This document shows, in pieces, positions 22,757 through 54,586 of a stretch of DNA of 56,452 nt. The position numbers and the translations under genes were made by a program. This DNA is from Gammaproteobacteria bacterium. GTDB taxonomy: Bacteria; Pseudomonadota; Gammaproteobacteria; UBA6429; Thiohalophilaceae. The stretch is taken from positions 1 to 56,452 of the forward strand of contig JAFLJQ010000183.1 of NCBI GenBank assembly GCA_022712915.1, given 5' to 3'. Each line of letters opens with the position of its first letter. Position 1 is the first letter of the stretch. Under the pieces are notes generated by a model, which ran no database searches, was not told the DNA's origin, and worked only from the letters and a program-made list of their open reading frames with translations.

Positions 22757-24184
22757 ATGCCTCAAATTATTAACACTAATATCATGTCGCTGAATTCGCA
22801 GCGTAACCTGAATACATCTCAGGAATCCATGCGAGTTTCACTGCAACGTCTGTCATCAGGTTTGCGTATTAACAGTGCAAAAGATGATGCGGCAGGTTTG
22901 GCGATTTCTGAACGTTTTACAGCACAGATTCGGGGTCTTAACCAGGCCGCACGTAATGCGAGTGATGCGATTTCATTATCGCAAACCGCTGAAGGTGCGC
23001 TGGGTGAGGCAGGTAATAACTTACAGCGTATTCGTGAGCTGTCTATTCAGTCTGCGAATGCCACCAACTCGGCATCGGATCGTTTGGCCCTTCAGGCTGA
23101 AGTGGGGCAGTTGGTTTCAGAGCTGGATCGTATTGCGACCAGTGCTGAATTCAATGGCCAGAAACTGCTGGATGGTACCTTCGGCACGGCTGTCTATCAG
23201 GTAGGTGCTAATGCCAACCAGACTATTGCCACTACCACGGCTAATTTCCGTACCAATCAGTACGGTAACAACCGTGTTTCTGGTACAGAAACGTCTGCTG
23301 GTGCTGGTGCTCGGATCACGGGTCAGGAGATCACCCTTAACGGTTATCTGGGGCAGGAGCGTATCAATGTTGTGGAGGGTGACAGTGCCAGGCGCGTCGC
23401 TGAACTGGTCAATGCCAAGGGTGATGATACCGGCATTACGTCCTTTGCCAATACTGAAACTCAAATGAACTTTAGCGCCACGGGTGCTTTTGTGATGGAT
23501 ATTAAATCTAGCAATGACACATTTAAGAACATTGCCTTCACGGTGAGTGATATCAGCACCACAGATGGTCTATCGGCGGCGGTATCGGCGTTCAATGATG
23601 TGGCCAGTCTCACCGGTGTCACCGCACGTGTTTCGAATGATGCCACTGGGATTGTTTTGCGTAGTGCGACCGGTGACAACATCGCCCTTAGGGACGGTGA
23701 TAATGCCAATGCCGGTGATATCATGGTGGGTAGTCAGGTACTGGCATCGGATAGTTCTGTGGATAACATGGTCATTACCGGTCAGGTGATGTATGACTCG
23801 GTAAAATCATTCAGTATCACCGGTAAGGAAGGTGAGGCCGTGAATATGGGCACAGAGGCCTCGGCCCTGATGGGTGTTTCTTCCATGGACATCAGCACGG
23901 TCGATGGTGCCAATAAGGCCCTGGCTATCGTCGATGCGGCCCTGTCTTCGGTGAGTGGCCAACGGGCGAAGTTTGGTGCGATTCAGAGTCGATTTGGTTC
24001 TACCATTGCCAATTTAACGACTAACTCTGAAAATCTGAGTGCCGCTCGTTCACGTATCCGTGATGCAGATTTCGCGGTCGAAACGTCGGAATTGACACGT
24101 ACCCAGATCCTCCAGCAGGCAGGTACGGCGATGTTGGCCCAGGCCAATTCGATTCCGCAGAACGTGTTGTCCTTGTTGCAGTAA
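22757..24184 (+). CDS. fliC: FliC2, second flagellin
   Basis: A 475-residue flagellin, the same length as FliC1, with matching D0/D1 ends and scattered substitutions in the centre. The start is the ATG at 22757 after AGGAGAG, giving M-P-Q-I-I-N-T as in FliC1; an earlier in-frame start at 22715 lies in the leader and would add residues absent from FliC1. A 134-base block (23768-23901) is identical to fliC1 17875-18008. It is the first gene of the partly decayed second fliC-flaG-fliD unit. Confidence 0.96.
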
Positions 24185-24250: not shown

Positions 24251-24565
24251 GTGGCTATAGAAAGTATGATAAGCATAACCTCGAAAATTGCAGTTGGTGG
24301 TGTTGAAGTTGAGCCGGCTCAGGTTTTCAGAGAGAAAACTGACAAGGTTGTCAGTGAACTAGGAGGTTTAGTACAGACCATGCGACGAGATATTAATTTT
24401 CATGTAGATGATGTAACTGGGCGTGTTGTTATACGCGTCGTTGAGACATCGACAAACAAGGTGGTGCGACAGATACCTGAGACAGAAGTCTTCGCGTTGG
24501 CACTGCATTTAGAAGGAATGTTGATGGGTATGCCAAGAGGTGTTTTAGTCGTGAGTGAAGCCTAG
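24251..24565 (+). CDS. Shortened second FlaG-family protein
   Basis: A 104-residue paralogue of FlaG1. The first 17 residues and the C-terminal FlaG domain (F-H-V-D-D-V-T-G-R-V-V-I-R-V-V-E-T-S-T-N-K-V-V-R-Q-I) are preserved. About 29 residues of the linker between them are deleted. The start is GTG where FlaG1 has ATG. The frame is intact, so it may still be made, but it sits between an intact flagellin and a ruined fliD and may be under weak selection. Confidence 0.8.
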   Translation: MAIESMISITSKIAVGGVEVEPAQVFREKTDKVVSELGGLVQTMRRDINFHVDDVTGRVVIRVVETSTNKVVRQIPETEVFALALHLEGMLMGMPRGVLVVSEA

Positions 24566-38447: not shown

Positions 38448-38505
38448 GATACTGACCGCTATATGTATCACAGTGTTTTATTAGTGCTTAATTAAGGAAA
38501 TGCTA

Positions 38506-38823
38506 ATGGGTTTGTTCTCTAAAGAAAAAGATCAGCGCCGTGATGAAGTCATCGTTGCCTGTGGAGCGGTTTTGGATGTATCTCGTGCAGCCGATTTTCA
38601 TAAGGAACTAAAAACTGCTCTGGGCAAGGGGGGCGTTATTGTCCTTGATGGGGCAGCAATAGAGAAAATAGATGCTGCGGCATTACAACTTTGTGCTGCA
38701 TTTTTTCATGATGCAGCAGCAAGGAAGGTTCAGGCAAAGTGGCTGACGCCTAGTGAACCGCTTATTCGGGCAGCTGGTTTGTTGGGATTGAAAAGCCAGT
38801 TGGGATTGCCAAATGGTAATTGA
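38506..38823 (+). CDS. STAS-domain protein at the head of the che operon
   Basis: A 105-residue single STAS (anti-anti-sigma-like) domain: V-I-V-A-C-G-A-V-L-D-V-S-R-A-A-D-F-H near the start, then V-I-V-L-D-G-A-A-I-E-K-I-D-A-A-A-L-Q-L, where STAS proteins that are phosphorylated carry Ser or Thr after D-x; here the position is Ala, so regulation by phosphorylation is doubtful. It is co-directional with cheY 36 bases downstream. Its role in the array is unknown; protein-protein interaction is the likely function. ATG 38506 has AAGGA at 7 bases. Confidence 0.85.
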   Translation: MGLFSKEKDQRRDEVIVACGAVLDVSRAADFHKELKTALGKGGVIVLDGAAIEKIDAAALQLCAAFFHDAAARKVQAKWLTPSEPLIRAAGLLGLKSQLGLPNGN

Positions 38824-38859: not shown

Positions 38860-39222
38860 ATGGCAACAATACTCGCAGTAGATGATTCGGCTTCGATGCG
38901 ACAGATGGTTAGTTTCACCTTAAAAGGTGCAGGCTATGAAGTTGTGGAAGCTTCCGATGGTAAGGATGCATTGGACAAAGCCAAGGGACAGAAATTTGAC
39001 CTTGTTATCTCTGATGTAAACATGCCCATCATGGATGGGATTACGCTTATAAAAGAACTCAGGGCATTAACAGAATATAAATTTATACCTCTGTTGATGT
39101 TGACAACAGAAAGCGGTGACGACAAAAAGGTTCAGGGTAAAACAGCTGGAGCCACCGGTTGGATAGTTAAACCCTTTAACCCAGATCAGTTGCTGGCCAC
39201 AATTAACAAGGTCTTGGGGTAG
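38860..39222 (+). CDS. cheY: CheY, single-domain response regulator
   Basis: A 120-residue receiver with the acidic pair D-D (about 8-9), phospho-acceptor Asp in L-V-I-S-D-V-N-M-P (about 52), the Thr in L-M-L-T-T-E, and Lys in W-I-V-K-P-F. It would take phosphate from the CheA encoded 10 bases downstream. No CheZ phosphatase gene is present. In the similar P. aeruginosa che2 operon the CheY does not mainly drive the flagellar switch, so motor control here is not assured. Confidence 0.94.
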   Translation: MATILAVDDSASMRQMVSFTLKGAGYEVVEASDGKDALDKAKGQKFDLVISDVNMPIMDGITLIKELRALTEYKFIPLLMLTTESGDDKKVQGKTAGATGWIVKPFNPDQLLATINKVLG

Positions 39223-39231
39223 GGGTGGTAT

Positions 39232-41874
39232 ATGTCTATTGATATGACACAATTTCTGGTCACTTTCTATGAAGAAAGTTTTGAAGGCCTTGAAATAATG
39301 GAATCGGAGTTGCTGAACTTAGACATAGGTGCTGCCGATGCCGAAACTATTAATACCATATTTCGTGCTGCTCATTCAATTAAGGGAGGCAGTGGTACCT
39401 TTGGTCTGAATGCAGTCGCATCCTATACCCATGTAATGGAAACGCTGCTGGATGAAATGCGTAATGGTAAACGTGAAGTTACTCAGCAGGCCGTTGCTAT
39501 TTTACTGTCATCGGTTGATGTCTTGCGAGACATGCTTAAATCACTGCGCGATGATTTACCGCTGGACCATGATGCTGTAGCCGCATCACAACAGGAACTT
39601 GATGAATTGTTAACAGGAGTTGAACATGGCGAAAGCCCTTCTTCTGACTCTGATCTTCATCATGCAGAAATAGAACCAGAACTAGAACCCGAGTTAGAAC
39701 CAGAAAGCCAGATGGGTTGGAGAATCTGCTTCACGCCACACCGGGATATGCTTAAGACGGGTAATGACCCAGTGCGTATGATACGTGAACTGGAATCAAT
39801 GGCTGATATTCAGGTCAATGTGGATATGGCTAATCTTCCTTCCCTGGATGATCTTGATGCAGAAGAAAGCTATTTATCCTGGGAAATATTTATGACGGAT
39901 TGTATTTCTGAAATAGAGGTGCGTGAGGTCTTTGCCTGGGTTGAGGATGAATGTGATTTGAGCATAGAACCATATGCTGGCACAGTTATGGAGCAGTCAT
40001 TAGATATTTCAGTAAAATCTGAACCTGAATTAAATGTTGAACTGTTGGAAAAAAGTTTCAATCTGGTTGCGCCAGAGGGTGAAAAAATAGTTGCCCAATT
40101 TTATGAACAGTTGTTTGAGCGCTTCCCTCAGGTTAAACCACTGTTTGCCAATACGACAACAGAAAAACAGCAGGTAAAATTACTTGCTGCTTTGAAGCTG
40201 GTTATTGGCAATTTACGTAATCCTGAAACCCTGATTAAAACTTTAACAGAACTGGGTGTTCGTCATCAAGCTTATGGCATCGAGGCTGCACACTATGAAG
40301 CTGTAGCCGAAACTTTATTGTCTGTCTTGCAGGAATTTGCCGGTGATGCCTGGACAGATGATGTGAAAACGGCATGGTCTGATGCACTAACGATTATTGC
40401 AACGGTCATGCTTGATGCCTATCAGGCCGATGATGAAGTTATTGCCGTACAACAGACTGCCGTACAACCTGCTGTCAGCCCTGTGCAGAAAACTGCCTCC
40501 ACATTGGTAGAGGAAAAGACCGCTCCTGCGCTAACAACAAAACCGATTGATAAAAAGGCAGCCGGGGAAGGACGCAAGCCATCTACCGGTTCTGGTACGG
40601 GTGAAACCTCAATACGTGTTTCGATTGATAAGGTGGATGAACTTATTAACACCGTTGGGGAACTGGTGATAACCCAGTCCATGTTAGGACAATTTGGTGA
40701 ATTAGAAGACCTAACCAATGACCACCAGGATAAATTACGCGATGGTTTGGCGCAGTTGGAGCGTAATACGCGTGAATTACAAGAATCGGTGATGCGGATT
40801 CGTATGTTGCCTATCAGTTTTACCTTCCAGCGTTTCCCTCGCCTGGTGCATGACCTGAGTAACCAGCTCGGTAAAAAAGTAGAGTTGAAAATGTCCGGTG
40901 AGCAAACTGAACTGGATAAAACCGTCATGGAGAAAATTGGCGACCCACTTGTCCATCTGGTGAGAAATTCGATGGACCATGGTATTGAATCGCCTGCGCA
41001 ACGTATTGCGGCGGGTAAACCGGAAATGGGTACAGTGAATCTGAATGCCTTCCATCAGGGTGGCAATATTGTTATTGAGATTAATGATGATGGCGGCGGT
41101 TTGAATGCTGAAAAAATTCTTGCAAAAGCCAAGAGTAACGGTTTGATTGGTGACGATGAAACGTTGACTGAAGAACAGATTCATGATCTTTTGTTTCAAC
41201 CTGGGTTTTCGACGGCAGATCAGGTTAGTGATGTATCGGGTCGTGGTGTTGGCATGGATGTGGTACGCCGGAATATACGCTCGTTGGGCGGTTCTGTTGA
41301 AGTCAAGTCAACGGAGGGTGTGGGATCAACCTTCACAATACGGCTACCATTGACTTTGGCTATTTTGGAGGGACAGTTGATTCGTGTCGGGCGGGAAACA
41401 TATGTTGTCCCATTGGTATCTATTATTGAATCTGTGCAGATACATAAAGAAAAGGTCAATGTAATCAGTGGGCGAGGTGAAGTGTATAAACTTCGTGATG
41501 ATTATATCCCTATTGTTCGCCTTTATCATGTTTTTGGTTTAAAAGCAGAGTCCACGACGCTTGATAAAGGTTTGTTGGTGATTGTTGAAACGGAAGGCAA
41601 AAAGGTAGCCATGTTTGTCGATGATTTATTGGGGCAGCAACAAGTGGTCATTAAAAGCCTGGAAACAAATTTTAGAAAAATAGACGGTCTGTCTGGCGCA
41701 ACTATCCTAGGTGATGGGACAGTAGCCTTGATTCTTGATGTTGCAGGTCTGTTTGATTTAAGTAAAAAAATTACAACCCATACAGATTTTGATAAATCTG
41801 ATGAACCAAGAGATTCTGAAATAGATTGTGATGAAAATAAACTCAAAGACAGTGATGATGAGGCTGTGGCGTAG
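39232..41874 (+). CDS. cheA: CheA histidine kinase with an inserted globin domain
   Basis: An 880-residue kinase. Domains in order: P1 HPt with phospho-acceptor His48 in R-A-A-H-S-I-K-G-G-S; a P2-like domain about 160-250 (G-W-R-I-C-F-T-P...F-A-W-V-E-D-E-C); a globin domain about 268-398; an Ala/Thr/Pro-rich linker; dimerisation (about 460-530, K-V-D-E-L-I-N-T-V-G-E-L-V-I); the ATPase domain with H-L-V-R-N-S-M-D-H-G-I-E and G-R-G-V-G-M-D-V-V; and a CheW-like C-terminal domain. The globin keeps F-Y (Tyr B10), P-L-F (Phe CD1) and proximal His345 in V-R-H-Q-A-Y-G. It is of the same family as the six globins of the nearby receptor. A globin between P2 and P3 is not a usual CheA architecture; it could make autophosphorylation sensitive to a heme ligand, which is inference. 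Confidence 0.95.
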   Translation: MSIDMTQFLVTFYEESFEGLEIMESELLNLDIGAADAETINTIFRAAHSIKGGSGTFGLNAVASYTHVMETLLDEMRNGKREVTQQAVAILLSSVDVLRDMLKSLRDDLPLDHDAVAASQQELDELLTGVEHGESPSSDSDLHHAEIEPELEPELEPESQMGWRICFTPHRDMLKTGNDPVRMIRELESMADIQVNVDMANLPSLDDLDAEESYLSWEIFMTDCISEIEVREVFAWVEDECDLSIEPYAGTVMEQSLDISVKSEPELNVELLEKSFNLVAPEGEKIVAQFYEQLFERFPQVKPLFANTTTEKQQVKLLAALKLVIGNLRNPETLIKTLTELGVRHQAYGIEAAHYEAVAETLLSVLQEFAGDAWTDDVKTAWSDALTIIATVMLDAYQADDEVIAVQQTAVQPAVSPVQKTASTLVEEKTAPALTTKPIDKKAAGEGRKPSTGSGTGETSIRVSIDKVDELINTVGELVITQSMLGQFGELEDLTNDHQDKLRDGLAQLERNTRELQESVMRIRMLPISFTFQRFPRLVHDLSNQLGKKVELKMSGEQTELDKTVMEKIGDPLVHLVRNSMDHGIESPAQRIAAGKPEMGTVNLNAFHQGGNIVIEINDDGGGLNAEKILAKAKSNGLIGDDETLTEEQIHDLLFQPGFSTADQVSDVSGRGVGMDVVRRNIRSLGGSVEVKSTEGVGSTFTIRLPLTLAILEGQLIRVGRETYVVPLVSIIESVQIHKEKVNVISGRGEVYKLRDDYIPIVRLYHVFGLKAESTTLDKGLLVIVETEGKKVAMFVDDLLGQQQVVIKSLETNFRKIDGLSGATILGDGTVALILDVAGLFDLSKKITTHTDFDKSDEPRDSEIDCDENKLKDSDDEAVA

Positions 41875-41885
41875 GAGTATGATAC

Positions 41886-42407
41886 ATGAATGATACTGCA
41901 ACAAATGCACACGATGTTGATTTGATGGAAGTTGGTAGTGAAGGTCAGCAATATCTAACCTTTATGCTGGCGGGTGAAGAATATGGTGTTGATATTCTTC
42001 GAGTGCAGGAGATAAAAGGTTGGGATACAGTAACAAAAATCCCTAATACGCCAGAATATATTCGTGGCGTAATTAATCTGCGTGGCACCATTGTACCACT
42101 CATTGACTTGCGTTTGCGGTTTAGTCTTGCTCAGTTGGACTACGGCGCTACAACTGTTGTGATTGTAATTAAGGTTCTTAATGAAAACCGAAAAGAACGA
42201 ACGATGGGCATCGTTGTTGATGCCGTTTCAGATGTATACAACATATCGAATGATGATTTCAGGGCTGCGCCTGATTTCGGAACGGCAGTGGATACCGATT
42301 TCATTAGAGGATTGGCAACGGTGAATGAGCAAATGGTGATATTGCTTGAGATAGATAACATGTGTAATTCAGCTGAGCTGAAAATAATCGATTCAATTTC
42401 AGAGTAA
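41886..42407 (+). CDS. cheW: CheW, receptor-kinase coupling protein
   Basis: A 173-residue CheW: Y-L-T-F-M-L-A-G-E-E-Y-G-V-D-I-L-R-V-Q-E-I, then G-V-I-N-L-R-G-T-I-V-P-L-I-D-L. It links the operon's receptor to CheA. It starts 11 bases after cheA. Confidence 0.96.
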   Translation: MNDTATNAHDVDLMEVGSEGQQYLTFMLAGEEYGVDILRVQEIKGWDTVTKIPNTPEYIRGVINLRGTIVPLIDLRLRFSLAQLDYGATTVVIVIKVLNENRKERTMGIVVDAVSDVYNISNDDFRAAPDFGTAVDTDFIRGLATVNEQMVILLEIDNMCNSAELKIIDSISE

Positions 42408-42420
42408 CGTAAAATATATA

Positions 42421-43179
42421 ATGAGAATTATTGCACTCATTAATCAAAAAGGTGGTGTCGGTAAAACGACTACCACCATGAATCTTGCCCATGCGCTGGC
42501 ACAACAAAATTATAAAGTGCTGGCCATTGATCTTGACCCACAGGCCAACCTTACGGTGGGTTTTGGAAAAACACAAAGGTCCTTGCCGGGTATTGCTGAT
42601 GCTTTGATTGATAATGTGTTACTTGAACATGTCAGTTATGAGGTTAGAGAAAATCTTGAACTTGTACCGTCAGGTGAGCGATTGGGTGAATTTGAATACA
42701 TAAAAAATAAAGGGGTAAGAAAAGGTTTTTTGCTACAAAGGTCAATCAGAGAAAAAATATCTGATAAGGACTTTGTTTTGATCGATTGTCCTCCCACCTC
42801 GGGTATTCTTGGTATGAATGCCTTGTTGGCAGCAAATGAAGTGATTATTCCCGTTGCCGGGGATTTTTACTCATTGCAAGGTCTATCCAGGCAGATGCAA
42901 ATATTTGATTATGTTGAGTCGACTCTCAACAGGAAAACTAAAAAATGGTTGGTGTTAACACGTTATAACGATAGACGAAAATTGGCGCGAGAAGTCAGGG
43001 ATAGTGTTATACACTATTTTCCAACATGTTTATTACAAACACCCATTCGTGAAACGGTGGCGCTGGCAGAGAGCCCTGCTTATGGCAAGACTATTTTCGA
43101 TTATCGAAATAAAAATCGTGGTGCAGAAGATTATCGTCAACTGGCAAATGATGTTTTGGCTGGCAGAGTGGGTAATTAA
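42421..43179 (+). CDS. ParA-family ATPase of the chemosensory operon
   Basis: A 252-residue MinD/ParA ATPase with the deviant Walker A K-G-G-V-G-K-T-T (about 10-17), switch I-like D-L-D-P-Q-A-N-L and Walker B-type F-V-L-I-D-C-P-P. There is no ParB or parS nearby and the gene lies between cheW and the receptor, so chromosome partition is unlikely. Che-operon ParA proteins such as PpfA of Rhodobacter sphaeroides and ParC of Vibrio position chemosensory clusters. The soluble receptor immediately downstream makes a PpfA-like role attractive. The ribosome site is weak, suggesting low or coupled translation. Confidence 0.9.
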
Positions 43180-43190
43180 GAGGCTTAGTA

Positions 43191-46100
43191 ATGACAACGG
43201 ATAAAGATAAACTTGGTTTTGATCCTCTTGCATGGATGAAAGAAGGTGTTGAAAGCTCTTCGCATCCTCTTGGATTTAATGTCGAGGTGTTGAAAAGCAC
43301 TTTTAATGCGATCTCCCCAAAACTGGATGAGGTCATTGTACGATTTTATGAAACATTGTTTACCCGCCATCCTGAGATCATTCCCTTTTTCTCTAATACT
43401 ACCCCGGATAAACAACAAAGAAAATTATCGGCTGCATTAACTCTTGTGGTCAGTAATCTTAATAATGTTGATGTTTTGACTAAAGCTTTGATAGAACTGG
43501 GTGCAAGACATCAAACTTATGGTGTTGAAACTGGCCATTACGGTATTGTAGCCTCAATTTTGCTGGAAGAGATGAAGAAACAGGCAGGCGATGTTTGGAC
43601 CGATGATGTTCATAAGGCCTGGAGCCATGCCCTGGAAGTCATCGCCAATGTAATGTTGAGTGCATACAATGATAGTCAACCTGATGTCAACGCAGATGAT
43701 CCTGATGTCTGTGCTACTGAAATAGAACACCCGTTGGGCTTGAATGTGCAGGCATTAACGAATAGTTTTAATCTACTGGCGCCTCAAGGTGAAGAGTTGG
43801 TTGCCAATTTTTATACTATATTATTTGAACGTTATCCACAGGTTAAAACCCTGTTTGTTAATACAACACCTAAACAACAGAAGCAAAAACTGCTTGCTGC
43901 CCTGACTTTATTGATAAAAAACCTTGAAAATGTAGACACTCTGGCCAAAGTGCTGACTGATTTGGGTGCGCGCCATCAAGGGTATGGTGTAGAACCTGCT
44001 CATTATGAGGTCGTTAGCTCAGTGCTTGTTGAGGCCATGCAAAACATGGCGGGCGATGCCTGGAACAGTGAAATCGAACAGGCTTGGACGCATGCCCTGC
44101 AGGTGATCTCTAAAGTGATGTTTGATGCCTATGTGGATGTCGATCCTATTGACACCCCGGAAGGTCATCCGCTTGGGCTTAATGTCCCCTTACTTGAGCG
44201 TAGTTTTGATGCCATTGCACCACGGGCCGGTGAGCTGGTACATAATTTCTACGCAAGATTGTTTGAGAAATTCCCGCAGATTAAATCATTGTTTGCCGGG
44301 AGTAATCCGGCCGAGCAAGAAAAGAAGCTTATTAATGCCTTGCAACTTGTTGTTTCTAATCTGCGCAATGTCGATACCCTTGCCAAGGCGTTGACCATTA
44401 TGGGAGAAAAACACCAGCAATATGGTGTTTTACCCGAACACTATATTGCTGTAACGAAAACATTGACGGCTGTCATGCATGAAATTGCGGGTGAACTTTG
44501 GTCTGATGAAATTCAGGCTGCATGGGAACATGCTATGAGTGTGGTTGCCAGCGTTATGATTGATGCTTATAGGGAGATCGATCCGATCGATACACCGGAA
44601 GGTCATCCTCTTGGTTTGAATGCACCTGTGATCGAGAAAAGCTTTAATGCCCTGGCACCGAGAGCTGTTGAACTGGTGCAACGATTTTATGACGTACTGT
44701 TTGAACGTTTTCCTTCGGTCCGCCTTTTATTTGCACATAGTAATCAGCCTGAACAGGGCAAGAAGCTTATCAATGCGCTACAACTGGTGGTTTCTAACCT
44801 TCGTGATATTGATACCCTGTCCAGAGTACTGACCAGCCTGGGAGAAAGACATCAGGGTTATGGTGTAGAGCCTGAACACTATAATGCGGTCGCGAGTACT
44901 CTGCTTGATGTCATGCAGGAGTTTGCCGGTGAGCAATGGACATCGGAGGTCAACGGGGCATGGCAGCATGCCTTAACTGTTGTTTCCAAGGTCATGCTCG
45001 ATGCCTATGGTGATGTTGACCCAATGGATACGCCAGAAGGCCATCCCCTTGGTTTGAATGCACCCCTGTTGGAACGCAGCTTTAATGCGCTCGCGCCGTG
45101 CGTGGATCAACTGGTGCACCGTTTTTATGAAGAATTGTTCAATCGTTTCCCTCAGGTTAAGCCTTTATTTGTTAATAGCAGTCAGTCGGAACAGGAAAAG
45201 AAACTCATCAATGCCTTGCAACTGGTGGTTTCGAATTTGAGAAACATTGACACTCTGGCTAAGGCGCTTACTACGCTGGGTGAAAAACATCAACAGTATG
45301 GTGTGAAAGCAGAACATTATACGGCTGTCATCAATACTCTGATTAATGTTATGCAGGAGTTTGCTGGAGAGTTATGGACTCAGGAAATCCAAAAAGCCTG
45401 GCAGCATGCCTTGAGTGTTGTTGCTAAAGTGATGTTGGATGCTTATTCAGATGAGGCTGTTGCACACGCTGATTTTGAACCTGAGAGAGAGCAAGTTAAA
45501 CCGATTCAAGTAGAACTTCCTGATTCAATATCACCACCGGCATTGGTGCATCCTTTGGGGTTAGATGTTGATAGTCTGACAGATAGTTTTATTTCTTTGG
45601 CACCACAAGCCGAGGCGATGATTTCTAAATTTTATGAGCAATTATTTTATCGTTACCCTGGGGTAAAACCTCTTTTTGTAAATGTTACACCTGAGAAACA
45701 AAAACAAAAATTATTAGCTGCTTTAGGATTACTGATTGATAACCTAAATAATGTGGATGTGTTGTCAAGAACATTAATGGGATTAGGTCAACGACATCAG
45801 AAATATGGTGCACAACCTGAACACTATCAGGCTGTTGCAACAACTTTGTTGGATGTGATGAGAGAGTTTGCAGGTTCATTATGGACACAGAAGATCCACG
45901 ATGCCTGGGCTCATGCACTTAACGTAATTGCTGATGTAATGATTAAAAGCTATATCGACTCGGAGACTGGAACAATGGCAGCTAATATGAACAATGTAGA
46001 TACATTGAATGAAAATGACAGTATGGAACTGGTACGCATGCGTTCAGCTGTGAATGGTGCAATGACCGCTATCATGATGATTGATCGTGATTTTAATATT

Positions 46101-48710
46101 ACGTATGTCAATGATGCAACGACTAAAATGCTGACAGAACACCAGGATGTATTACGTAGTGTGTATCCTGGTTTTGATGCGAAAAATATAATTGGACAAT
46201 GTATTGACCAGTTTCACAAAAATCCAGCACACCAGCGTCAGTTATTGAGTAACCCGGCAAATCTTCCTTATTCGACAGATATTGAAGTGGGGCATCTCAG
46301 ATTTTTGCTCAATGTGACGGCGATGACAGATACTTCGGGTAATTACATCGGCAATACGCTTGAGTGGAGCAATGTAACGGGTTTGCGAGCTAAGGAAGGT
46401 GAAGTTATTCGTCTACAAGGCACGGTTGATAATGCCATGACCGCGATCATGATGATCGACAGGGACTTGAATATTACCTACGCCAATCATTCAACCGTCA
46501 GTTTACTGAAGAGCCATGAAGTGACGTTGCGGCAGATCTATCCCAATTTTTCTGTTGATAATCTGATCGGAACGTGTATTGATAGCTTTCATAAGAATCC
46601 GTCTCATCAACGTCAGATTTTGGGTGCGGCCTCGAATATGCCGTATAGCACGGATATCCAGGTAGGGCCTTTATTATTTAGAATTAATGTAACAGCCATT
46701 CTTGACGAGAAAAGTGCTCATATTGGTAATGCGCTGGAATGGTCTGATGTGACTGACCTACGTAAACGTGAAGGTGATGTCGTTCGTCTACAAGGGACTG
46801 TCGATAATGCCATGACTGCAATCATGATGATTGATCGTGATCTTAATGTGACCTACGCCAATCAGTCAACCATTGCATTATTGACGTTGCATGAGGCTAC
46901 TTTAAAACAGATTTACCCTAGTTTTGCGGTTGATAAATTGATCGGTTCCTGTATTGATATGTTTCATGCCAATCCTGCCCATCAACGTCAGCTATTGGGA
47001 AATGCAGCGAATCTTCCCTATAGCACGGACATTCAGGTGGGGCCATTGATGTTTCGTATTAATGTCACGGCCATCATGGACACATTAGGAGAATATATAG
47101 GTAATGCTCTTGAATGGTCTGATGTGACAGAAACACGTAAGAAAGAAATAGAGGTCGCCAGGCTGTCTTCAGCAGTAGAAAGTGCAACCACTAATTTGAT
47201 GTTGTGTGATAGCGATTTGAATATTACCTTTGCTAACCCAGCCGTTATTAATATGTTGGCTAAACGACAAAATGAGCTGCGTAAGGTCTGGCCGAGTCTT
47301 GATGTGAACAATTTGCTGGGACAATGTATCGATCAATTCCACAAAAATCCGGCGCATCAGCGAGGACTGTTATCTGATGCCAGTCGGTTACCCGCCAGAG
47401 CAGAAATTGTCGTTGGGGATCTGGAATTTGAAGTGAACGCAACCATGGTTAAAGGGCCGAGTGGAGAATACTTGGGCAACATGGTGGAATGGAAAGATAT
47501 CACGGAACAAAAAGATGCCGAACGCCAGATTCAGAATTTGATTGATGCCGCTACGGAGGGTCAACTCGATTCACGCATTGAGGCATCTCAATATGAGGGC
47601 TTCATGAAGGGCTTGGCTGATGGTATTAATAATCTGATGAATGCCGTTGTTGTACCGATTAAAGAAGGTAAACGAGTGATGTCTGCACTTGCGGAAGGTG
47701 ATTTGACCAAACAAATGGATGGTGAGTTTAAGGGCGAATTTGCCGAGTTGAGAGATGCCATTAACGAATCGGTTAGTAATCTTTTCAATATGGTCAATGA
47801 AATTCGGGGTGCCTCGGGTAATATCGCTTCTGGGTCAGGAGAAATTGCCCAGGGTAATGCTGACCTTAGCCAACGTACGGAAGAGCAGGCCTCCTCACTT
47901 GAGGAAACGGCATCCAGCATGGAAGAAATGACCAGTACCGTAAAGCAAAATGCGGATAATGCCAGACAAGCTAATCAACTTGCTGCGGAGGCCCGCACTC
48001 AGGCAGAAAAAGGCGGCTCGGTTGTGTCGAATGCCATTTCTGCCATGTCTGAAATTAACACGTCGAGTAAGAAAATCGCCGATATCATCGGCGTGATTGA
48101 TGAGATTGCCTTCCAGACTAATCTGTTGGCCCTGAATGCTGCTGTTGAAGCGGCCCGAGCGGGTGAACAAGGTCGAGGCTTTGCTGTGGTGGCGGGTGAG
48201 GTGCGTAATCTGGCGCAACGTAGTGCCGGTGCGGCGAAAGAGATCAAGTCACTTATTAAGGATAGTGTTGAGAAAGTGGATGAAGGCTCAAAACTGGTTG
48301 ATGAGTCTGGTGCAACCCTGAACGAAATTGTTACTTCAGTGCAAAAGGTCGGTGACATTATTGCTGAAATAGCCGCTGCCGGTCAGGAACAATCATCTGG
48401 TATCGAGCAGGTGAATAAGGCCGTGATGCAAATGGATGAAATGACGCAGCAGAATGCTGCTCTGGTTGAAGAGGCTGCATCAGCCAGTGAATCCATGGAA
48501 GAACAGGCCAAGGGGTTGATAAAACTGATGGACTTTTTCAATGTGGGTAATTCTGGTGAAGATTCATCGGGTTTCTCAAAGAGGAAAGCAGCACCTTCAT
48601 CGAAGGCTTCCTCTGGAGGAGCACCACGAGAATCACGGCCTACCTCAACACCTTCTAAACGTCGTCCTGCCTCTAAAAATACCGATGATGATGAATGGTC
48701 TGAATTTTAA
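43191..48710 (+). CDS. Soluble chemoreceptor with six globins, four PAS domains and an MCP signalling domain
   Basis: An 1839-residue methyl-accepting protein with no membrane segment. Six globin domains begin at about residues 25, 180, 326, 472, 618 and 787; domains 2-5 recur at exactly 146 residues, joined by D[13 protein letters not shown] linkers. Each keeps F-Y (Tyr B10; Tyr53 in the first), a CD1 Phe (Phe67) and a proximal His (107, 262, 408, 554, 700, 869) in R/K-H-Q-x-Y-G. Four PAS domains follow at about 948, 1071, 1196 and 1320, with 125-residue spacing and F-H-K-N-P-A-H-Q-R motifs. HAMP-like segments (about 1449-1530) and the MCP domain follow, with hairpin tip [19 protein letters not shown] from about 1638. 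The tail ends E-W-S-E-F, resembling the CheR-tethering pentapeptide. It is likely a cytoplasmic heme-based sensor; the ligand is unknown. Confidence 0.95.
43728..45479 (+). repeat. Four tandem 438-base globin-coding units
   Basis: Units start at 43728, 44166, 44604 and 45042, each 438 bases (146 codons), with clear nucleotide similarity, strongest between the last three (shared GGTCATCC.CTTGG junctions). A more diverged unit lies on each side (43263 and 45549). The arrangement indicates growth by in-frame tandem duplication. Confidence 0.88.
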
Positions 48711-48724
48711 CGAGAGTTGAATAC

Positions 48725-49564
48725 ATGGCTTCAGTATACGAACGAGAGTTTGAATTTAGTCGTAAAGACTTTGAACACATTCGCGATCTTGTTGGTGACA
48801 GGACGGGCATTGTCCTGTCAGATCATAAGATCGATATGGTTTATGGTCGATTGTCCCGGCGTTTAAGGCAACTTGGAATTACCAAGTTTGCTGAATATCT
48901 CTCTCAGCTAGAAAGCGATGATAAGGAACTGGTGGAATTTACCAATGCCTTGACAACAAATTTGACCTCATTTTTCCGCGAACCGCACCATTTTGAATTT
49001 CTCAAGGGAACTGGTTTGCCTGCCTTATTGAAAGGAAGGCCAGATAAAAAACTTCGAATCTGGTCGGCGGGTTGTTCGACAGGGGAAGAACCATACACCA
49101 TTGCTATGACAGTTAAGGAAGCTTTGGTTTCACATGCTAACTGGGATGTGAAAATTCTTGCAACAGATCTTGATTCTAATGTTGTAAACAGAGCCAAGGC
49201 CGGCATTTATTCTCAGGATAAAGTTAATGGCGTTGATCAAGCTCGTCTAAAAAAATGGTTTCGTAAAGGTCGAGGTGACTCACACGAAGGTCAAATGAAA
49301 ATAGCGACAGAGTTGCAGGACATGATTACCTTTAAACAATTGAATCTGATGCATGATTGGCCAATGGGTGGTCAGTTTGATGTCATTTTTTGCCGCAATG
49401 TAGTGATCTACTTTAATAAAGATACGCAACGTGAATTATTTGATCGTTATGCTGATTATTTGGCTGATGATGGTTATCTTTTTGTTGGTCACTCTGAATC
49501 ACTGCATAAGGTTTCGGAGCGTTTTAAATTGATCGGTAAAACAATCTATCATAAGGTAGGCTGA
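48725..49564 (+). CDS. cheR: CheR methyltransferase (che-operon copy)
   Basis: A 279-residue receptor methyltransferase with L-T-S-F-F-R-E-P-H-H-F, the SAM loop W-S-A-G-C-S-T-G-E-E-P-Y, A-T-D-L-D-S-N-V and F-D-V-I-F-C-R-N-V-V-I-Y-F. It differs substantially from the cheR at 4164 and starts 14 bases after the receptor, so it likely methylates that receptor, possibly via the EWSEF tail. Together with CheD and CheB it forms a complete adaptation set. Confidence 0.95.
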   Translation: MASVYEREFEFSRKDFEHIRDLVGDRTGIVLSDHKIDMVYGRLSRRLRQLGITKFAEYLSQLESDDKELVEFTNALTTNLTSFFREPHHFEFLKGTGLPALLKGRPDKKLRIWSAGCSTGEEPYTIAMTVKEALVSHANWDVKILATDLDSNVVNRAKAGIYSQDKVNGVDQARLKKWFRKGRGDSHEGQMKIATELQDMITFKQLNLMHDWPMGGQFDVIFCRNVVIYFNKDTQRELFDRYADYLADDGYLFVGHSESLHKVSERFKLIGKTIYHKVG

Positions 49565-49567: not shown

Positions 49568-50218
49568 ATGTCATCAATATTTAATGAGGATAAACCCGCC
49601 CCAGAAAAAATGCTGCGAGGGTTTTCTGAGATCAATCGATACTGGGATAGACAACGGATGTTGTATGCCGCCAAAATTCTACCGGGCCAATATTATGTCA
49701 CCGTGGGAGAGGAATTGATTGTGACGGTGCTCGGATCATGTGTTTCAGCATGTATTCGTGACCCGGCTATGGGTATCGGTGGTATGAATCATTTTATGTT
49801 ACCGACTGGTGAGCATACGGGTAAGTTGATGGAACGTAATAGTGATGCAACCCGTTATGGTAACTTTGCTATGGAAAAATTGATTAATGATATTTTGAAG
49901 CATGGGGGGGTGCGTGAAAATCTTGAAGTAAAGGTCTTTGGTGGTGGTAAGGTGATTGAGCATATGACTGAGGCCGATATTGGTGGTAGAAATATAAGGT
50001 TTGTCAGGGAGTTTCTGGCTACGGAAGGTCTTAGAATTGTTGCTGAGGATTTGGGTGATATCTATCCGCGCAAGGTGGTGTATGAACCTAAGACCGGTAA
50101 GGTTCACATAAGAAAACTTCGTACAATGCACAATGACACCGTTGCCAAACGTGAAGAAAGTTATAAGAAAGAACTCGATAACAAACCGGTATCGGGTGAT
50201 ATTGAGCTATTTGATTAA
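49568..50218 (+). CDS. cheD: CheD, receptor glutamine deamidase
   Basis: A 216-residue protein with catalytic Cys in L-G-S-C-V-S-A-C and catalytic His in G-G-M-N-H-F-M-L-P, and a later F-G-G-G motif. It deamidates glutamines on receptors to create methylation sites. It is spaced three bases from cheR. Confidence 0.95.
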
Positions 50219-50229
50219 GAGTGAATGAT

Positions 50230-51309
50230 ATGAAGAAGATTGGTGTATTGATTATCGATGATTCGGCATTAATCCGAAAATTATTGACTGAAATACTGAA
50301 CCGGGATCCACAGATAGAAGTCCTGGACACGGCAGCGGATCCTCTCATTGCGCGTGAAAAAATTAAATTGCTCAAGCCAGATGTATTGACGCTGGACGTT
50401 GAAATGCCAAGAATGGATGGCATTACTTTTTTGAGAAACCTGATGCGACTGCGTCCCATGCCTGTCATTATGATCTCTACGATGACTGAGGCGGGTGCAG
50501 AGGTGACGTTGGAAGCACTTGAGTTGGGTGCTGTGGATTTTGTGACCAAACCAAAACTTGATGTCGTAGATTCTATTGATGATTATGCGGCTGATATTAT
50601 AGAAAAAGTCAAAATCGCTTCAAAGGCAAAGGTGCGGTCAATTGAGGATCGTCCAAAGCTGGATAAGGTCGAACCTAAGCTGAATGCCGATGCTATTCTT
50701 GAAAAGAAAGAGGGCGAGAAAGGCCATCTGAAAACGACAGAAAAAATCATCGCTATTGGGGCCTCCACCGGTGGAACCGAGGCCATTCGTGAGGTGCTGG
50801 AACGCATGCCCGCTGATTCTCCTGGTATCGTCGTGACACAGCATATCCCGGCTGCCTTTAGTGGTTCTTTTGCCAAGCGCATGGACAGTGTTTCTGCCAT
50901 GACGGTGGTTGAGGCCCGTGATGGCGATCAGATTATCCCTGGGCACGCCTTTATTGCGCCGGGAGACCGGCACTTGATGGTCGAGCGAAGTGGCGCGCGC
51001 TACTATTGCCGTTTAAGTGATGGTCCCCCAGTGAACCGTCATATCCCAAGTGTGGACGTCCTGTTTCGTTCTGTTGCCCAGAATGTCGGCCCCAATGCCA
51101 TTGCAGTGATGCTGACTGGCATGGGTGATGATGGTGCGAGGGGCATGCTGGAGATTAAAAATCACGGTGCCCCAACCGTAGCCCAGGATGAAAAGACCAG
51201 TGTGGTATGGGGAATGCCCGGTGAGGCCGTCAAAATTGGAGCGGTTGACACACAATTGCCGCTGGATAAGATTGCCGGCAAGCTTATTTCCCTTGCCCGT
51301 AAAAATTAA
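50230..51309 (+). CDS. cheB: CheB methylesterase
   Basis: A 359-residue two-domain enzyme. The receiver has D-D-S and phospho-acceptor Asp in [12 protein letters not shown]. The C-terminal methylesterase has catalytic Ser in G-A-S-T-G-G-T, His in T-Q-H-I-P and Asp in [12 protein letters not shown] 50230 with AAGAG 8 bases upstream is preferred over GTG 50221. It is the last gene of the operon and is followed by a terminator. Confidence 0.95.
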
Positions 51310-51347: not shown

Positions 51348-51471
51348 GATTTTTATTTTTATTTTGTTGTTGTGTCTTTTCTGGCCCGTCTATTGCAAAA
51401 CTTCTCCTGTTAGAGAAATCATTCCCGTTAACCGACTTGTATGGAAAGGTAAAGGAGAATGCTCTGCATGG

Positions 51472-52242
51472 ATGGCGATGACCCATTTTGACAGGTCAAT
51501 TGATAATAGTGGACAGAATGACGTGAGAAATGCACGACAGTACAAAAAAGAAGCGATATGTTCTGGTGATGAACTGGTTAAAAAACATGCATCATTAGTT
51601 CATCGTATTGCTTACCATTTATCTGCGCGCCTCCCAGCTAGTGTTATGGTTGATGATTTGATTCAGGCTGGGATGCTGGGTTTGCTGGATGCTGCTGGTT
51701 TGTATGACCCAAGTCAGGGTGCCAGTTTTGAAACCTATGCGAGCATTCGTATTCGTGGCTCTATGCTGGACGAATTGCGGCGTAATGATTGGGCTCCGAA
51801 ATCTATTCATCGCAAGGAGCGGGATTTGATGAAGGCCATTCAGAAAATTGAAGGGACAACGGGTCGTGATGCCCGTGGGCAGGAAATTGCCGATGAACTG
51901 GGTATTTCACTGGATGATTATCATCAGATATTACAGGAGACCAGCACCTGCCGTGTATTGAACTTTGTTGATTTAGGTGTGAGTGAGGACTTATTAGGAG
52001 TGGGTATGCAATCCAGTCAACCGGAACCTCTGGCCGATGTGCAAAAGGCTGAATTTCGTCAGCAGTTGGTTAAGGCTATCTCCAGTCTACCTGAACGTGA
52101 ATGTTTTGTTGTTAGCATGTATTATGATGATGAGCTTAATTTAAAGGAAATTGGTGAAGTTTTAGGGGTGAGTGAATCAAGAATTAGCCAGTTACTCAGT
52201 CAGGCCCATCTTCGTATCCGTACAAAATTCAGTGAGTTATAA
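51472..52242 (+). CDS. fliA: FliA, flagellar sigma-28 factor
   Basis: A 256-residue sigma factor. Region 2 shows D-D-L-I-Q-A-G-M-L-G-L-L-D-A-A and F-E-T-Y-A-S-I-R-I-R-G-S-M-L-D-E-L-R-R; region 4 shows L-P-E-R-E-C-F-V-V-S-M-Y-Y-D-D-E-L-N-L-K-E-I-G-E-V-L-G-V-S-E-S-R-I-S-Q. It would read the TAAA-N15-GCCGATAA promoters noted here and is inhibited by FlgM. The start is the ATG at 51472; the AAAGGAG at 51451 is 14 bases away, so the exact start is uncertain. In Pseudomonas fliA follows flhF-fleN, which are absent here. Confidence 0.95.
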   Translation: MAMTHFDRSIDNSGQNDVRNARQYKKEAICSGDELVKKHASLVHRIAYHLSARLPASVMVDDLIQAGMLGLLDAAGLYDPSQGASFETYASIRIRGSMLDELRRNDWAPKSIHRKERDLMKAIQKIEGTTGRDARGQEIADELGISLDDYHQILQETSTCRVLNFVDLGVSEDLLGVGMQSSQPEPLADVQKAEFRQQLVKAISSLPERECFVVSMYYDDELNLKEIGEVLGVSESRISQLLSQAHLRIRTKFSEL

Positions 52243-52431: not shown

Positions 52432-53874
52432 ATGGAGTCGAATATTTTTTTGTTAGTGCCAAGCCCTATGTTGTCTGGGTTGATCTGGTTCACTTTGGTG
52501 ATTCTGGTGATGTACTTTGCCCGGCAACCTGCGCATTTGGCCTTTCGCTCCCTATGCAAGGTGGTGCATAACACTATGCGCTTGTCTGCCCGCTCGATTA
52601 TGCGCGCAGAAGAACGATTGGCAAATCGTAATCGTGAAGTCATCCTTGCTAAGGGTCGTGAATCGATGGAACGTGATATTGAACGTGAATTTGAACGTGT
52701 GGATGCCACTGTACGTAAAGATTTGTCTGGCTATCCTGCTTTGCATCGACAATTAAGTGAAGAGATTACGCTTATTGATGAAGACTATAAGCAAAGTGCT
52801 GAAGTACCACCTTCTCCGCCAAGCTGGATCAAGGCTGTTGATGCTGTGGCCAGTATTCCTGCCAAGGACGATCCTATGGTGGGCAGTATCCTGAGTGATA
52901 TCCACCAGTCACTTGTTAAGGCGAACAATAATGCGATCGAGGAATATCGTAAATCTAGTCACAAACGGCATATGTATTTGAAAGACATGATGCCGCATTG
53001 GCGTAAAGTGTTGTCCGCACTGAGTATGGTAGATAAAAATGTTAATAGTCTGCTGCTTAGATCAAAAGTGATTGATCGCCACATGGAGAATTATGAAAAT
53101 ATCCTTAAGAAGACAGATCGTGCTGTGCGCGAATTGTCTTCTTCTTCCATGACGCAGTTTTTTATTGCGGGCTTCGTGCTGCTGATTGCTGTAGGTGGTG
53201 GGATTATCAACTTCAATTTGATTGCTCGGCCTATGTCTGAAATGGTGGGGGGCACTGCTCGTATCATGGGCTTTCAGACCTCAAATATTGCTGCATTGGT
53301 GATTATCCTGATAGAAGTGGCCATGGGGCTATTCCTTATGGAGTCGATGCGTATTACACGCCTGTTTCCCGTGATCGGTGCCCTGAATGATAAGTTGCGG
53401 GTCAGGATGATCTGGATCTCGCTGACTATCCTGACCATACTGGCGACGGTCGAAGCGGGCTTGGCTTTTATGCGTGAGATCATGATGGAGGATGCTGCTG
53501 CCACAAGGGCGGCCTTGCGTGGAGGGGAAACAACCGAAGTTGTGCAGAGTTCTTTCCTGTGGATTACTACTGCGGCACAAATGGGCATGGGCTTTATTTT
53601 GCCATTTGCCCTGACCTTTGTTGCTATTCCGCTTGAGTCTTTCATACATTCATTCCGCACGGTTATCGGCGTAGTGGTGGTCGGCAGTTTGCGTGCATTG
53701 GCTTGGTTCCTCAGGTTTATTGGAGATATTTCAAAATTCACCAGTAATACATTTGTTCACACCTATGATTTGGTTATTTTCTTGCCACTTTGGATAGAAA
53801 AAGTCATACAGGGGAAACAAGCCGAAAAAAAGGGTGCTAAGCCAGGGGGCACAAAGGCTTATTCTTCCCATTGA
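52432..53874 (+). CDS. Uncharacterised multi-pass membrane protein
   Basis: A 480-residue protein. The first membrane helix lies at about 12-30. A long charged helical region (about 35-235, many R-E-x-x-E-R repeats) follows. Then come about five helices (near 243-265, 285-303, 327-348, 380-405 and 412-432). The C terminus is basic. I do not recognise a family. It has AGGAGG before the ATG and is followed after 52 bases by a von Willebrand A lipoprotein, so the two probably form a cell-envelope unit. A possible sigma-28-like GCCGATTATAA lies upstream near 52368, but the spacing from TAAA is only 12. Confidence 0.85.
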   Translation: MESNIFLLVPSPMLSGLIWFTLVILVMYFARQPAHLAFRSLCKVVHNTMRLSARSIMRAEERLANRNREVILAKGRESMERDIEREFERVDATVRKDLSGYPALHRQLSEEITLIDEDYKQSAEVPPSPPSWIKAVDAVASIPAKDDPMVGSILSDIHQSLVKANNNAIEEYRKSSHKRHMYLKDMMPHWRKVLSALSMVDKNVNSLLLRSKVIDRHMENYENILKKTDRAVRELSSSSMTQFFIAGFVLLIAVGGGIINFNLIARPMSEMVGGTARIMGFQTSNIAALVIILIEVAMGLFLMESMRITRLFPVIGALNDKLRVRMIWISLTILTILATVEAGLAFMREIMMEDAAATRAALRGGETTEVVQSSFLWITTAAQMGMGFILPFALTFVAIPLESFIHSFRTVIGVVVVGSLRALAWFLRFIGDISKFTSNTFVHTYDLVIFLPLWIEKVIQGKQAEKKGAKPGGTKAYSSH

Positions 53875-53926: not shown

Positions 53927-54586
53927 ATGTATAACAAATTAAAAGCGATTATGGTGATGTTGGGTGTTTCGTTGCTTGTTACTAGTTGTTCTGATAAAGG
54001 CCCTTATACTCATGGCGTCTACATGCTGCTTGATACGTCTGGGACCTATACCAAAGAGCTGGCACAGGCACAGCGTGTTATTAGCTATACTCTTTCTCAG
54101 TTAAATCCTGGTGATACCTTTGTTATTGCACGAGTTGATACGGGCAGCTTCAGTGAAAAGGATATTATTCAGAAACAAACTTTTGAAGATCGCCCTAGTA
54201 TGGCCAATCAGCAAAAACGTCGTTTTCAGGAAAAGATTGAAGCGTTTGTAAAAAATGTCAAACCAAGTAAGTATACCGATATTACCGGAGGTATTCTGCA
54301 AGCGATTGAATTTTTGAATGAGAGAAAAACACGCAAGAAAACCATTCTGATCTTTTCGGATCTGAAGGAAGAGCTTCAGGAAGGCTATATCAGGGATATT
54401 GCTTTTGAGCTGGATGGTTTTCGTATCGTGGCCCTGAACGTCACCAAGTTGCGCAGTGATAATATCGATCCACGTGAATATATTGATCGTTTGGCTCAAT
54501 GGAAAAACCGGGTTGAATCCGCAGAAGGAACCTGGATGGTCATTAATGATATTGGACGTCTGGAACCTCTTTTTCTGCAAGATTAG
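53927..54586 (+). CDS. Lipoprotein with von Willebrand A-like domain
   Basis: A 219-residue exported protein. The signal peptide ends in lipobox L-V-T-S-C with acylated Cys21. A von Willebrand A-type fold follows: V-Y-M-L-L-D-T-S-G-T-Y at 31-41 supplies a MIDAS-like Asp-x-Ser-x-Thr, Y-T-D-I-T-G-G the Thr, and I-L-I-F-S-D-L-K-E the final Asp. Such domains bind metal and mediate protein contacts. It probably works with the membrane protein encoded just upstream. Function unknown. Confidence 0.85.
   Translation: MYNKLKAIMVMLGVSLLVTSCSDKGPYTHGVYMLLDTSGTYTKELAQAQRVISYTLSQLNPGDTFVIARVDTGSFSEKDIIQKQTFEDRPSMANQQKRRFQEKIEAFVKNVKPSKYTDITGGILQAIEFLNERKTRKKTILIFSDLKEELQEGYIRDIAFELDGFRIVALNVTKLRSDNIDPREYIDRLAQWKNRVESAEGTWMVINDIGRLEPLFLQD

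What the first reader, a model, noticed from the sequence alone, without database searches (positions are those of the whole stretch)
43191..48710. Chemoreceptor with six tandem globin domains
The receptor carries six consecutive globins ahead of four PAS domains and an MCP signalling domain, with no membrane helix. Known globin-coupled chemoreceptors (HemAT type) have one globin of the sensor class; these resemble the single-domain or flavohemoglobin-like globin family instead. Every unit retains Tyr B10, Phe CD1 and the proximal His, so all six may bind heme. Six heme sites per subunit could give cooperative or graded ligand response, ligand storage near the array, or several redox states. 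I know of no described receptor with this layout, but I could not search.
Basis: partly seen in the sequence, partly recalled or inferred. Interest (0 to 1): 0.93.

Follow-up and report, generated by a model that had tools for sequence, protein, structure and literature searches.

The report
Oxygen chemoreceptor carrying six haemoglobin domains
An uncultured bacterium has a sensor protein with six haemoglobin-like domains in a row plus four more likely haem sites, and its relatives have added the same haemoglobin module to other parts of the sensing machinery, which suggests that oxygen binding has been built into the sensing array.

Summary
ORF 43191-48710 (1839 aa) has six PF00042 globins, four PAS, HAMP and MCPsignal, and no membrane helix. 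Tyr B10, Phe CD1, Gln E7 and His F8 are kept in all six. (1) The C-terminal part is Aer2-like, in an F7-type che operon, and all four PAS keep the haem-ligand His and pocket Trp of Aer2: up to ten predicted haem sites per chain. (2) The CheA of the operon also carries a globin, in its P2-P3 linker. (3) One-globin relatives occur in many gammaproteobacterial families; arrays (2 or more, 3, 6, probably 8) were seen only in this order, in the genomes sampled. Relatives carry the globin in CheA (probably two or more origins), inside CheW, tripled behind CheW, or fused to STAS. Five of six units have collinear orthologues in a second species, under purifying selection. A unit is predicted to fold like Hell's Gate globin I (TM 0.87). 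Likely role: O2 (or NO) sensing in which globins add ligand-binding capacity to a haem-PAS array. Haem binding, ligand and signalling are inferred, not shown. New variant of a known kind; I found no description in the open-access papers listed by my searches.

The parts
43191..48710 (+). Multi-globin Aer2-like chemoreceptor, 1839 aa
43191..43262 (+). N-terminal leader with the LGFDPLAWM motif, shared with several one-globin relatives and with globin-STAS proteins
43263..43670 (+). globin unit 1 (aa 25-160)
43728..44135 (+). globin unit 2 (aa 180-315); structure predicted
44166..44573 (+). globin unit 3 (aa 326-461)
44604..45011 (+). globin unit 4 (aa 472-607)
45042..45449 (+). globin unit 5 (aa 618-753)
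45549..45956 (+). globin unit 6 (aa 787-922)
46011..47522 (+). four PAS domains; each keeps FHxNPxHQ (His at aa 1009, 1134, 1259, 1384) and EW (Trp at aa 1059, 1184, 1309, 1434), the haem His and pocket Trp of Aer2
47595..47777 (+). HAMP (HAMP_2, aa 1469-1529)
47976..48446 (+). MCP signalling domain (aa 1596-1752)
48693..48707 (+). C-terminal pentapeptide EWSEF (fits the tether motif x-[HFYW]-x2-[HFYW])
38500..38823 (+). STAS protein, first gene of the operon
38860..39222 (+). CheY-type response regulator
39232..41874 (+). CheA with an inserted globin
40015..40419 (+). globin domain in the P2-P3 linker of CheA (aa 262-396)
41886..42407 (+). CheW
42421..43179 (+). ParA-family ATPase (the name ParC is recalled, by position)
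48725..49564 (+). CheR
49568..50218 (+). CheD
50221..51309 (+). CheB

Best explanation
A soluble, Aer2-like chemoreceptor of an F7-type chemosensory array has expanded its N-terminal haem globin from one copy to six. Each globin most likely binds O2 (or NO) reversibly on a haem held by His F8 with Tyr B10 and Gln E7 on the gas side. The four downstream PAS domains most likely also bind haem, and the signal reaches CheA by the route described for Aer2: PAS to HAMP to MCP tip. The main effect of the added globins, here and on CheA (and on CheW and STAS proteins in relatives), is to put a high local concentration of O2-binding sites inside the array. Shown from sequence: the domains, the pocket residues, the operon, the orthology of units, and the spread of the module. 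Inferred: haem loading, O2 as ligand, the PAS signalling route, and the capacity or buffering role.
For: Six of six globins and the CheA globin keep Tyr B10, Phe CD1, Gln E7 and His F8. The unit fold matches O2-bound Hell's Gate globin I, which has very high O2 affinity and the same Tyr29/Gln50 pair (PMC4476040, passages). The PAS segment matches Aer2 PAS structures 3vol and 4hi4, and the haem His and Trp are kept in 4 of 4; V. vulnificus Aer2 binds haem on all three of its PAS (PMC13401364 section 13). The order STAS-cheY-cheA-cheW-x-aer2-cheR-cheD-cheB and the EWSEF tail fit stage 1 F7 systems (PMC7184735 sections 10-11). Units 1, 2, 3, 4 and 6 have collinear orthologues in G001; between these species synonymous sites are near saturation (pS 0.71-0.81) while pN is 0.11-0.20. 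CheA carries the globin in 6 of 40 genomes of the order and in one genome of another family, in the P2-P3 linker where both sides are seen. In G022 it is close to its own receptor's globin (81% DNA identity over 417 bp), and a joint clade with the main CheA group is rejected (AU p 0.0003; the group was chosen after seeing the first tree). CheW carries the globin internally in G137 and three copies behind it in G010. In G021 and G028 the receptor has no such globin but a neighbouring globin-STAS protein does.
Against: No haem binding, O2 affinity, expression or taxis has been measured; AlphaFold2 was run without haem. Repeated recruitment shows that the module is useful in the array, not that the use is O2 capacity: NO handling or separate sensory inputs would leave the same trace. 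The genome also has a cheZ-cheA cluster beside another fliA, so this array may not steer the flagella; Ortega et al. call the function of stage 1-2 F7 systems unclear. Most receptors of the type that I saw have one globin. The Aer2 model's cut-off is passed here with help from repeated PAS; four relatives score below it.
Confidence: 0.55

Rival explanations
1. Graded multi-site sensor: each globin is its own input, with different O2 affinities, signalling along the chain so that the receptor covers a wide O2 range or responds cooperatively.
For: Units have diverged to 46-71% identity and five of six keep their own lineage across two species. Cooperative O2 binding between dimeric sensor globins is known in PccGCS (PMC12805357, passages).
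Against: Units do not differ at B10, CD1, E7 or F8, so these positions give no sign of tuned affinity. The model of units 3-5 fixes no arrangement (pTM 0.53, from only 7 sequences). Globins in CheA and CheW have no evident path to the receptor.
Confidence: 0.25
2. NO handling: the globins bind or detoxify NO and so protect or inform the haem-PAS sensors.
For: Among NCBIfam models the globins match the NO-inducible flavohaemoprotein; Tyr B10 and Gln E7 are shared with that group of bacterial globins (PMC4476040, passages).
Against: No FAD/NAD reductase domain in the protein; the flavohaemoprotein score of the receptor just passes the cut-off only because six globins add up. A separate reductase was not looked for.
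Confidence: 0.12
3. Spacer or cross-linker: the globins are spacers or oligomerisation units that set array height or packing, and haem is incidental.
For: F7 arrays show density layers that match stacked receptor domains (PMC7184735, passages), so extra domains would add layers.
Against: Four haem-pocket residues are invariant in 54 of 54 globins aligned, including those in CheA and behind CheW, which a spacer would not need.
Confidence: 0.08
4. Assembly artefact: the six copies come from mis-assembly of one or two.
For: Contigs of three relatives (G001, G002, G005) end inside their receptor arrays.
Against: The six units differ at 29-46% of DNA positions, and five have collinear orthologues in another species; G010 has a three-unit version inside one contig.
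Confidence: 0.02

Closest known systems
Aer2 haem-PAS chemoreceptors (P. aeruginosa, V. cholerae, V. vulnificus) of F7 chemosensory systems
   Same: PAS with the haem His and Trp, HAMP, MCP signal region of 36H-like length, C-terminal tether motif, no membrane helix, che gene order up to cheB
   Different: The F7 paper has the word globin 0 times in its main text and the review section on Aer2 describes PAS and HAMP only; here there are six globins, and one more in CheA
HemAT and other globin-coupled sensors with MCP output
   Same: Soluble globin plus MCP signalling domain; presumed O2 sensing
   Different: HemAT-Bs is described as one globin, a linker and a signalling domain (review passages), of the sensor globin class; here six PF00042 globins, with PAS and HAMP between them and the MCP domain
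One-globin Aer2-like receptors of Gammaproteobacteria
   Same: Same globin type, PAS-HAMP-MCP body and che neighbourhood; 28 genomes looked at by domain, three of these receptors cut by a contig end after the globin
   Different: One globin; mostly two or three PAS with the His motif
Hell's Gate globin I and HGbRL (Methylacidiphilum)
   Same: Closest solved chains by profile; Hell's Gate globin I is also closest by fold; Tyr B10 and Gln E7
   Different: Single-domain, or one globin fused to Roadblock/LC7; not chemoreceptors

Membership tests
M/F-family 3/3 globin | PF00042 profile | tested here: met
   6 of 6 receptor units and the CheA unit over the cut-off
M/F-family 3/3 globin | Proximal His F8, Phe CD1, Tyr B10 and Gln E7 | tested here: met
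   invariant in 54 of 54 aligned globins
M/F-family 3/3 globin | Globin fold | tested here: met
   predicted, not solved: unit 2 pLDDT 95.7, 3s1i TM 0.87; units 3-5 give 18 helices
M/F-family 3/3 globin | Haem binding | not testable with these tools
   needs protein
Flavohaemoglobin | FAD/NAD reductase domain | tested here: not met
   no such domain in the Pfam scan
Aer2-like / F7 receptor | PAS with the Aer2 haem His and Trp | tested here: met
   4 of 4 PAS; H234 is named and its place counted in the 4hi4 sequence; W283 is recalled
Aer2-like / F7 receptor | NCBIfam Aer2 model NF041847 | tested here: inconclusive
   1375 bits, cut-off 1200, in two stretches, so repeated PAS add to the sum; four relatives score 939-1078, under the cut-off
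Aer2-like / F7 receptor | 36H heptad class | tested here: inconclusive
   aa 1497-1796 cover positions 227-526 of the Tar-type model PRK15048, equal lengths; no heptad classifier was run, and the class of that model is recalled
Aer2-like / F7 receptor | C-terminal CheR tether pentapeptide | tested here: met
   EWSEF fits x-[HFYW]-x2-[HFYW]; binding not tested
Aer2-like / F7 receptor | Stage 1 gene order: STAS, cheY, cheA, two cheW-like, aer2, cheR, cheD, cheB, mcpA | tested here: inconclusive
   met up to cheB except a ParA-like gene where the second cheW-like is expected; fliA and no MCP follows cheB
Aer2-like / F7 receptor | F6 system also present | tested here: inconclusive
   a cheZ-cheA cluster beside fliA on contig C120; the CheZ match, E 6e-50, is under its model's cut-off; no class model was run
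HemAT-type globin-coupled sensor | Sensor (protoglobin-type) globin, PF11563 | tested here: not met
   whole-protein sum 74.8 bits but no stretch passes on its own; PF00042 far stronger
HemAT-type globin-coupled sensor | Globin plus MCP signalling output | tested here: met

The most novel reading that the evidence does not exclude
The whole chemosensory array has been turned into an O2-binding matrix: globins on the receptor, on the kinase and, in relatives, on the coupling protein and a STAS partner buffer O2 at tens of millimolar haem next to haem-PAS sensors, giving the array a built-in memory or low-pass filter for oxygen set by globin off-rates. On a lattice of about 12 nm with twelve receptor chains per cell (recalled) and 40 nm height (assumed), six globins give about 24 mM globin haem sites and four PAS about 16 mM (arithmetic).
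Probability: 0.25. Interest if true: 0.93.

Novelty: new variant of a known kind. Interest (0 to 1): 0.82.

Why it matters
The Aer2 and HemAT receptors described in the papers I read carry one globin or up to three haem-PAS domains. Here the same haem module appears on the receptor, kinase, coupling protein and a STAS partner of one type of array. That makes testable the idea that the amount of ligand-binding haem in an array, and not only the allostery of one receptor, is under selection. It bears on the open question of what the ancestral F7 array does. It also offers a natural series of 1, 3, 6 and probably 8 globins for measuring how site number shapes a sensory response.

Tried and rejected
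Assembly artefact: rejected on unit divergence and collinear orthology. HemAT-type sensor globin: rejected. CheA globin of G022 by gene conversion rather than a second insertion: not excluded, but its trailing linker resembles that of the globin-less CheA of G007 more than those of the other globin CheAs (my reading of the alignment); hence 'probably two or more origins'. G069 CheA globin as a third origin: undecided (AU p 0.27). The AU groups were chosen after a first tree had been seen, which weakens the p-values.

Other multi-globin proteins of this type: besides the window's receptor, no second globin in one frame among the rows listed for 369 class genomes (weak rows not listed, and in some genomes only 11 of up to 20 first-look candidates were scored) or 398 phylum genomes (limit E 1e-20, 10 candidates scored at most). 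In the plasmid collection (20 of 233 records listed) the one listed place longer than a single globin, Embleya, is two neighbouring frames. Other phyla were not searched by genome.

Papers that did not describe it: Methylospira (a protoglobin MCP; passages), Fe-oxidiser genomes (passages), a 2006 globin survey (passages; [quoted passage not shown] Ten paper searches were run; only part of the hits were listed (20 of 52, 10 of 84,144, 10 of 27). The library lacks most subscription papers; PMC6214802 (V. cholerae Aer2) is not held, and Stuffle 2022 was seen only as cited in the review.

Rows dropped before counts and trees: A2 keeps 39 of the 54 rows of A1 (stand-alone globins, L045 and the three globin-STAS rows left out). 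One search used 86 units; matches under about 100 residues were left out, and of the loci fetched by then only those named in its script were scanned. One search left out units of 21 named loci and used 81; one search used 41 chosen units without the CheW-fused ones. Alignment A4 collapsed on unit 4 and was not used.
Full report
THE OBSERVATION. The frame 43191-48710 (+) is open and codes 1839 aa. Pfam gives six separate globin stretches, MCPsignal, HAMP_2 and PAS; four PAS are counted by repeated motifs. The units begin at aa 25, 180, 326, 472, 618 and 787 and are 46-71% identical to each other in protein, 54-71% in DNA. No stretch is hydrophobic enough to suggest a membrane helix. In a 54-row alignment that includes the six units and the CheA globin, the invariant columns are Y29, F33, F43, Q51, H83 and W120. 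Y29 and Q51 line up with Tyr29(B10) and Gln50(E7) of Hell's Gate globin I; the labels CD1 for F43 and F8 for H83 are recalled. In the 39-row subset from chemosensory proteins 25 columns are invariant, these among them.

STRUCTURE. AlphaFold2 on unit 2 gives pLDDT 95.7 and pTM 0.88. The best PDB match is 3s1i, O2-bound Hell's Gate globin I: TM 0.87, rmsd 1.2, 31% identity. By profile the best chains are 3wfw (HGbRL) and 3s1i. Hell's Gate globin I has very high O2 affinity and low autoxidation (PMC4476040, passages). Units 3-5 together give 18 helices, three times six, with pLDDT 87 but pTM 0.53, from 7 sequences, so the placing of units relative to one another is not fixed by the model.

A MISSED HALF: AER2 AND HAEM-PAS. 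The best stretch for NCBIfam's Aer2 model is aa 1075-1839; the whole-protein score is 1375 bits, cut-off 1200. That score is raised by repeated PAS: four relatives score 939-1078, so I say Aer2-like. The PAS segment matches solved Aer2 PAS structures 3vol and 4hi4, and best of all 6ceq, a PAS of another methyl-accepting protein. The FHxNPxHQ motif and a following Trp occur four times. The first His lines up with the haem ligand H234 of P. aeruginosa Aer2 (H234 from PMC13401364 section 13; its place by counting in 4hi4); the Trp is W283 (recalled). In V. vulnificus Aer2 all three PAS bind haem with similar O2 affinity (same section). So the chain has up to ten predicted haem sites: six globin, four PAS.

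THE OPERON. STAS, cheY, cheA, cheW, a ParA-family ATPase, the receptor, cheR, cheD and cheB, then a fliA-type sigma factor. It lies among flagellar genes (my reading of the frames). The order is close to the stage 1 F7 order of Ortega et al. 2020: anti-sigma antagonist, cheY, cheA, two cheW-like, aer2-like, cheR, cheD, cheB, mcpA-like (PMC7184735 section 10), but with the ParA-like gene in place of a second cheW-like and no MCP after cheB. The receptor ends in EWSEF, which fits their tether motif (section 11). Its signalling region has the length of the Tar-type model in profile coordinates. The genome has four frames with the CheA dimerisation domain and 19 MCPsignal matches, the window's included. 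One of the CheA frames is in a cheZ-cheA cluster beside another fliA; the CheZ match has E 6e-50 but is under its model's cut-off. [quoted passage not shown] The genome has aa3 and cbb3 oxidases, which fits life over a range of O2.

A GLOBIN IN CHEA. The CheA of the operon has one globin. All seven PF00042 matches of this genome at E 0.001 lie in these two genes. Aligned with CheA of relatives without a globin, the insert sits between P2 and P3 (the domain names P2 and P3 are recalled).

RELATIVES. The order holds 40 genomes here, all in one family; 29 of 40 have a match to the globin model at E 0.001, stand-alone globins included, and 20 of 40 at 1e-30, the window's genome counted. Record titles of matching contigs call four of them Gammaproteobacteria, Chromatiales or Ectothiorhodospiraceae. 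At domain level one-globin receptors were seen in 28 genomes, 11 of this family and 17 of other families, fetched because they matched; three of these receptors (G023, G069, G126) run off a contig end after the globin. By my count of the rows listed, 42 of 369 class genomes besides the window's have a match in a frame of 590 aa or more; only the 17 were checked by domain. More than one globin was seen in five genomes of three genera: the window (6), G001 (three on one contig, four on another), G010 (3, in one frame), and G002 and G005 (at least 2 each, split by contig ends). In G001 the two contig ends repeat 119 and 127 bases of an internal unit exactly, so a unit is missing between them and the number is probably eight. 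No other frame with two such globins appears in the rows listed for the class sample or the phylum sample (398 genomes, E 1e-20); both lists and the scoring behind them are capped.

SPREAD OF THE MODULE. CheA globins: window, G001, G002, G004 and G010 form one clade (99/98; 100/96). In G002 the gene is split over two contigs and in G004 it runs off the contig inside the globin. G022 instead pairs with its own receptor's globin, and a joint clade is rejected (AU p 0.0003); the two are 81% identical in DNA over 417 bp that cover the globin and a few residues on either side. G069, of another family, has one too, for which a shared origin is not rejected (p 0.27). CheW: inside CheW in G137 (and, by frame length and tree, G352), three copies behind CheW in G010. 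STAS: globin plus STAS in G021, G028, G032 and G172; three of four pass a STAS cut-off and G028 (24 bits, cut-off 29) does not. In G021 and G028 the neighbouring receptor has no such globin; in G032 the receptor's start lies off the contig, so it cannot be judged; in G172 the receptor keeps its globin.

AGE AND SELECTION. Unit 1 groups with the first units of G001 and G002 (98/86); units 2, 3, 4 and 6 pair with units of G001 in the same order (100/93, 99/91, 100/88, 100/98). Unit 5 is 83% identical to the expected third unit of the G001 contig, but the tree puts it beside the unit 3 pair. Between the two species pS is 0.71-0.81, near saturation, and pN 0.11-0.20 for the six units; for the CheA globin pS is 0.62 and pN 0.23. 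So the array is older than the split of these species, and its units are kept under purifying selection with the haem pocket.

HOW IT MOST LIKELY WORKS. Shown: domains, residues, operon, spread, orthology. From known families: Aer2 haem-PAS bind O2 and signal through HAMP to the kinase. Inferred: the globins bind O2; PAS and HAMP carry the signal; the globins add O2-binding sites to the array. I prefer this to direct allostery because the same module has been added to CheA, CheW and a STAS protein at places with no evident signalling path to the receptor, and the aligned copies keep the haem pocket (which holds the CheA, CheW-tail and STAS copies of the first set of loci; those of G137, G069 and G172 were fetched later and are not in it). 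With a 12 nm lattice and the stated assumptions the sites come to about 24 mM globin haem. NO handling, separate graded sensors, or spacers are not excluded.

PRINT. In the papers listed by ten full-text searches of the open-access library I saw no chemoreceptor with more than one globin and no globin-bearing CheA or CheW; I read titles, abstract starts and passages, not whole texts. The 2026 aerotaxis review (passages and section 13) describes HemAT with one globin and Aer2 with PAS and HAMP. The F7 paper (abstract, passages, sections 10-12) holds the word globin zero times in its main text. Most subscription papers are outside this library.

Noticed in passing
window 43191-43262; L054, L055, L056, L161: A short N-terminal motif around DPL[AS]W is shared by a number of these receptors and by the globin-STAS proteins; it may be a docking peptide.
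   Followed up: partly
window 43191-48710: The summed score of six globins just passes NCBIfam's cut-off for NO-inducible flavohaemoprotein (432.6 against 432), so automatic annotation could misname this receptor.
   Followed up: no
window 51364-52242; L192 10571-11302: Two fliA-type sigma factors in the genome, one behind this che operon and one beside the cheZ-cheA cluster.
   Followed up: partly
window 16864-18291 and 22715-24184: Two very similar flagellin-like genes, each followed by a similar short frame (18358-18759, 24251-24565), by reading of the translations.
   Followed up: no
window 52432-53874: A 480 aa frame with hydrophobic segments and no Pfam match behind fliA, followed by a frame with a weak VWA match at 53927-54586.
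   Followed up: no
L166 4863-6830 (G431): A 656 aa frame of another class of the phylum with a related globin at its C-terminus and no chemotaxis domain found.
   Followed up: no
L201 (Embleya plasmid): Two neighbouring frames, one with a clear and one with a weak match to the globin model.
   Followed up: partly
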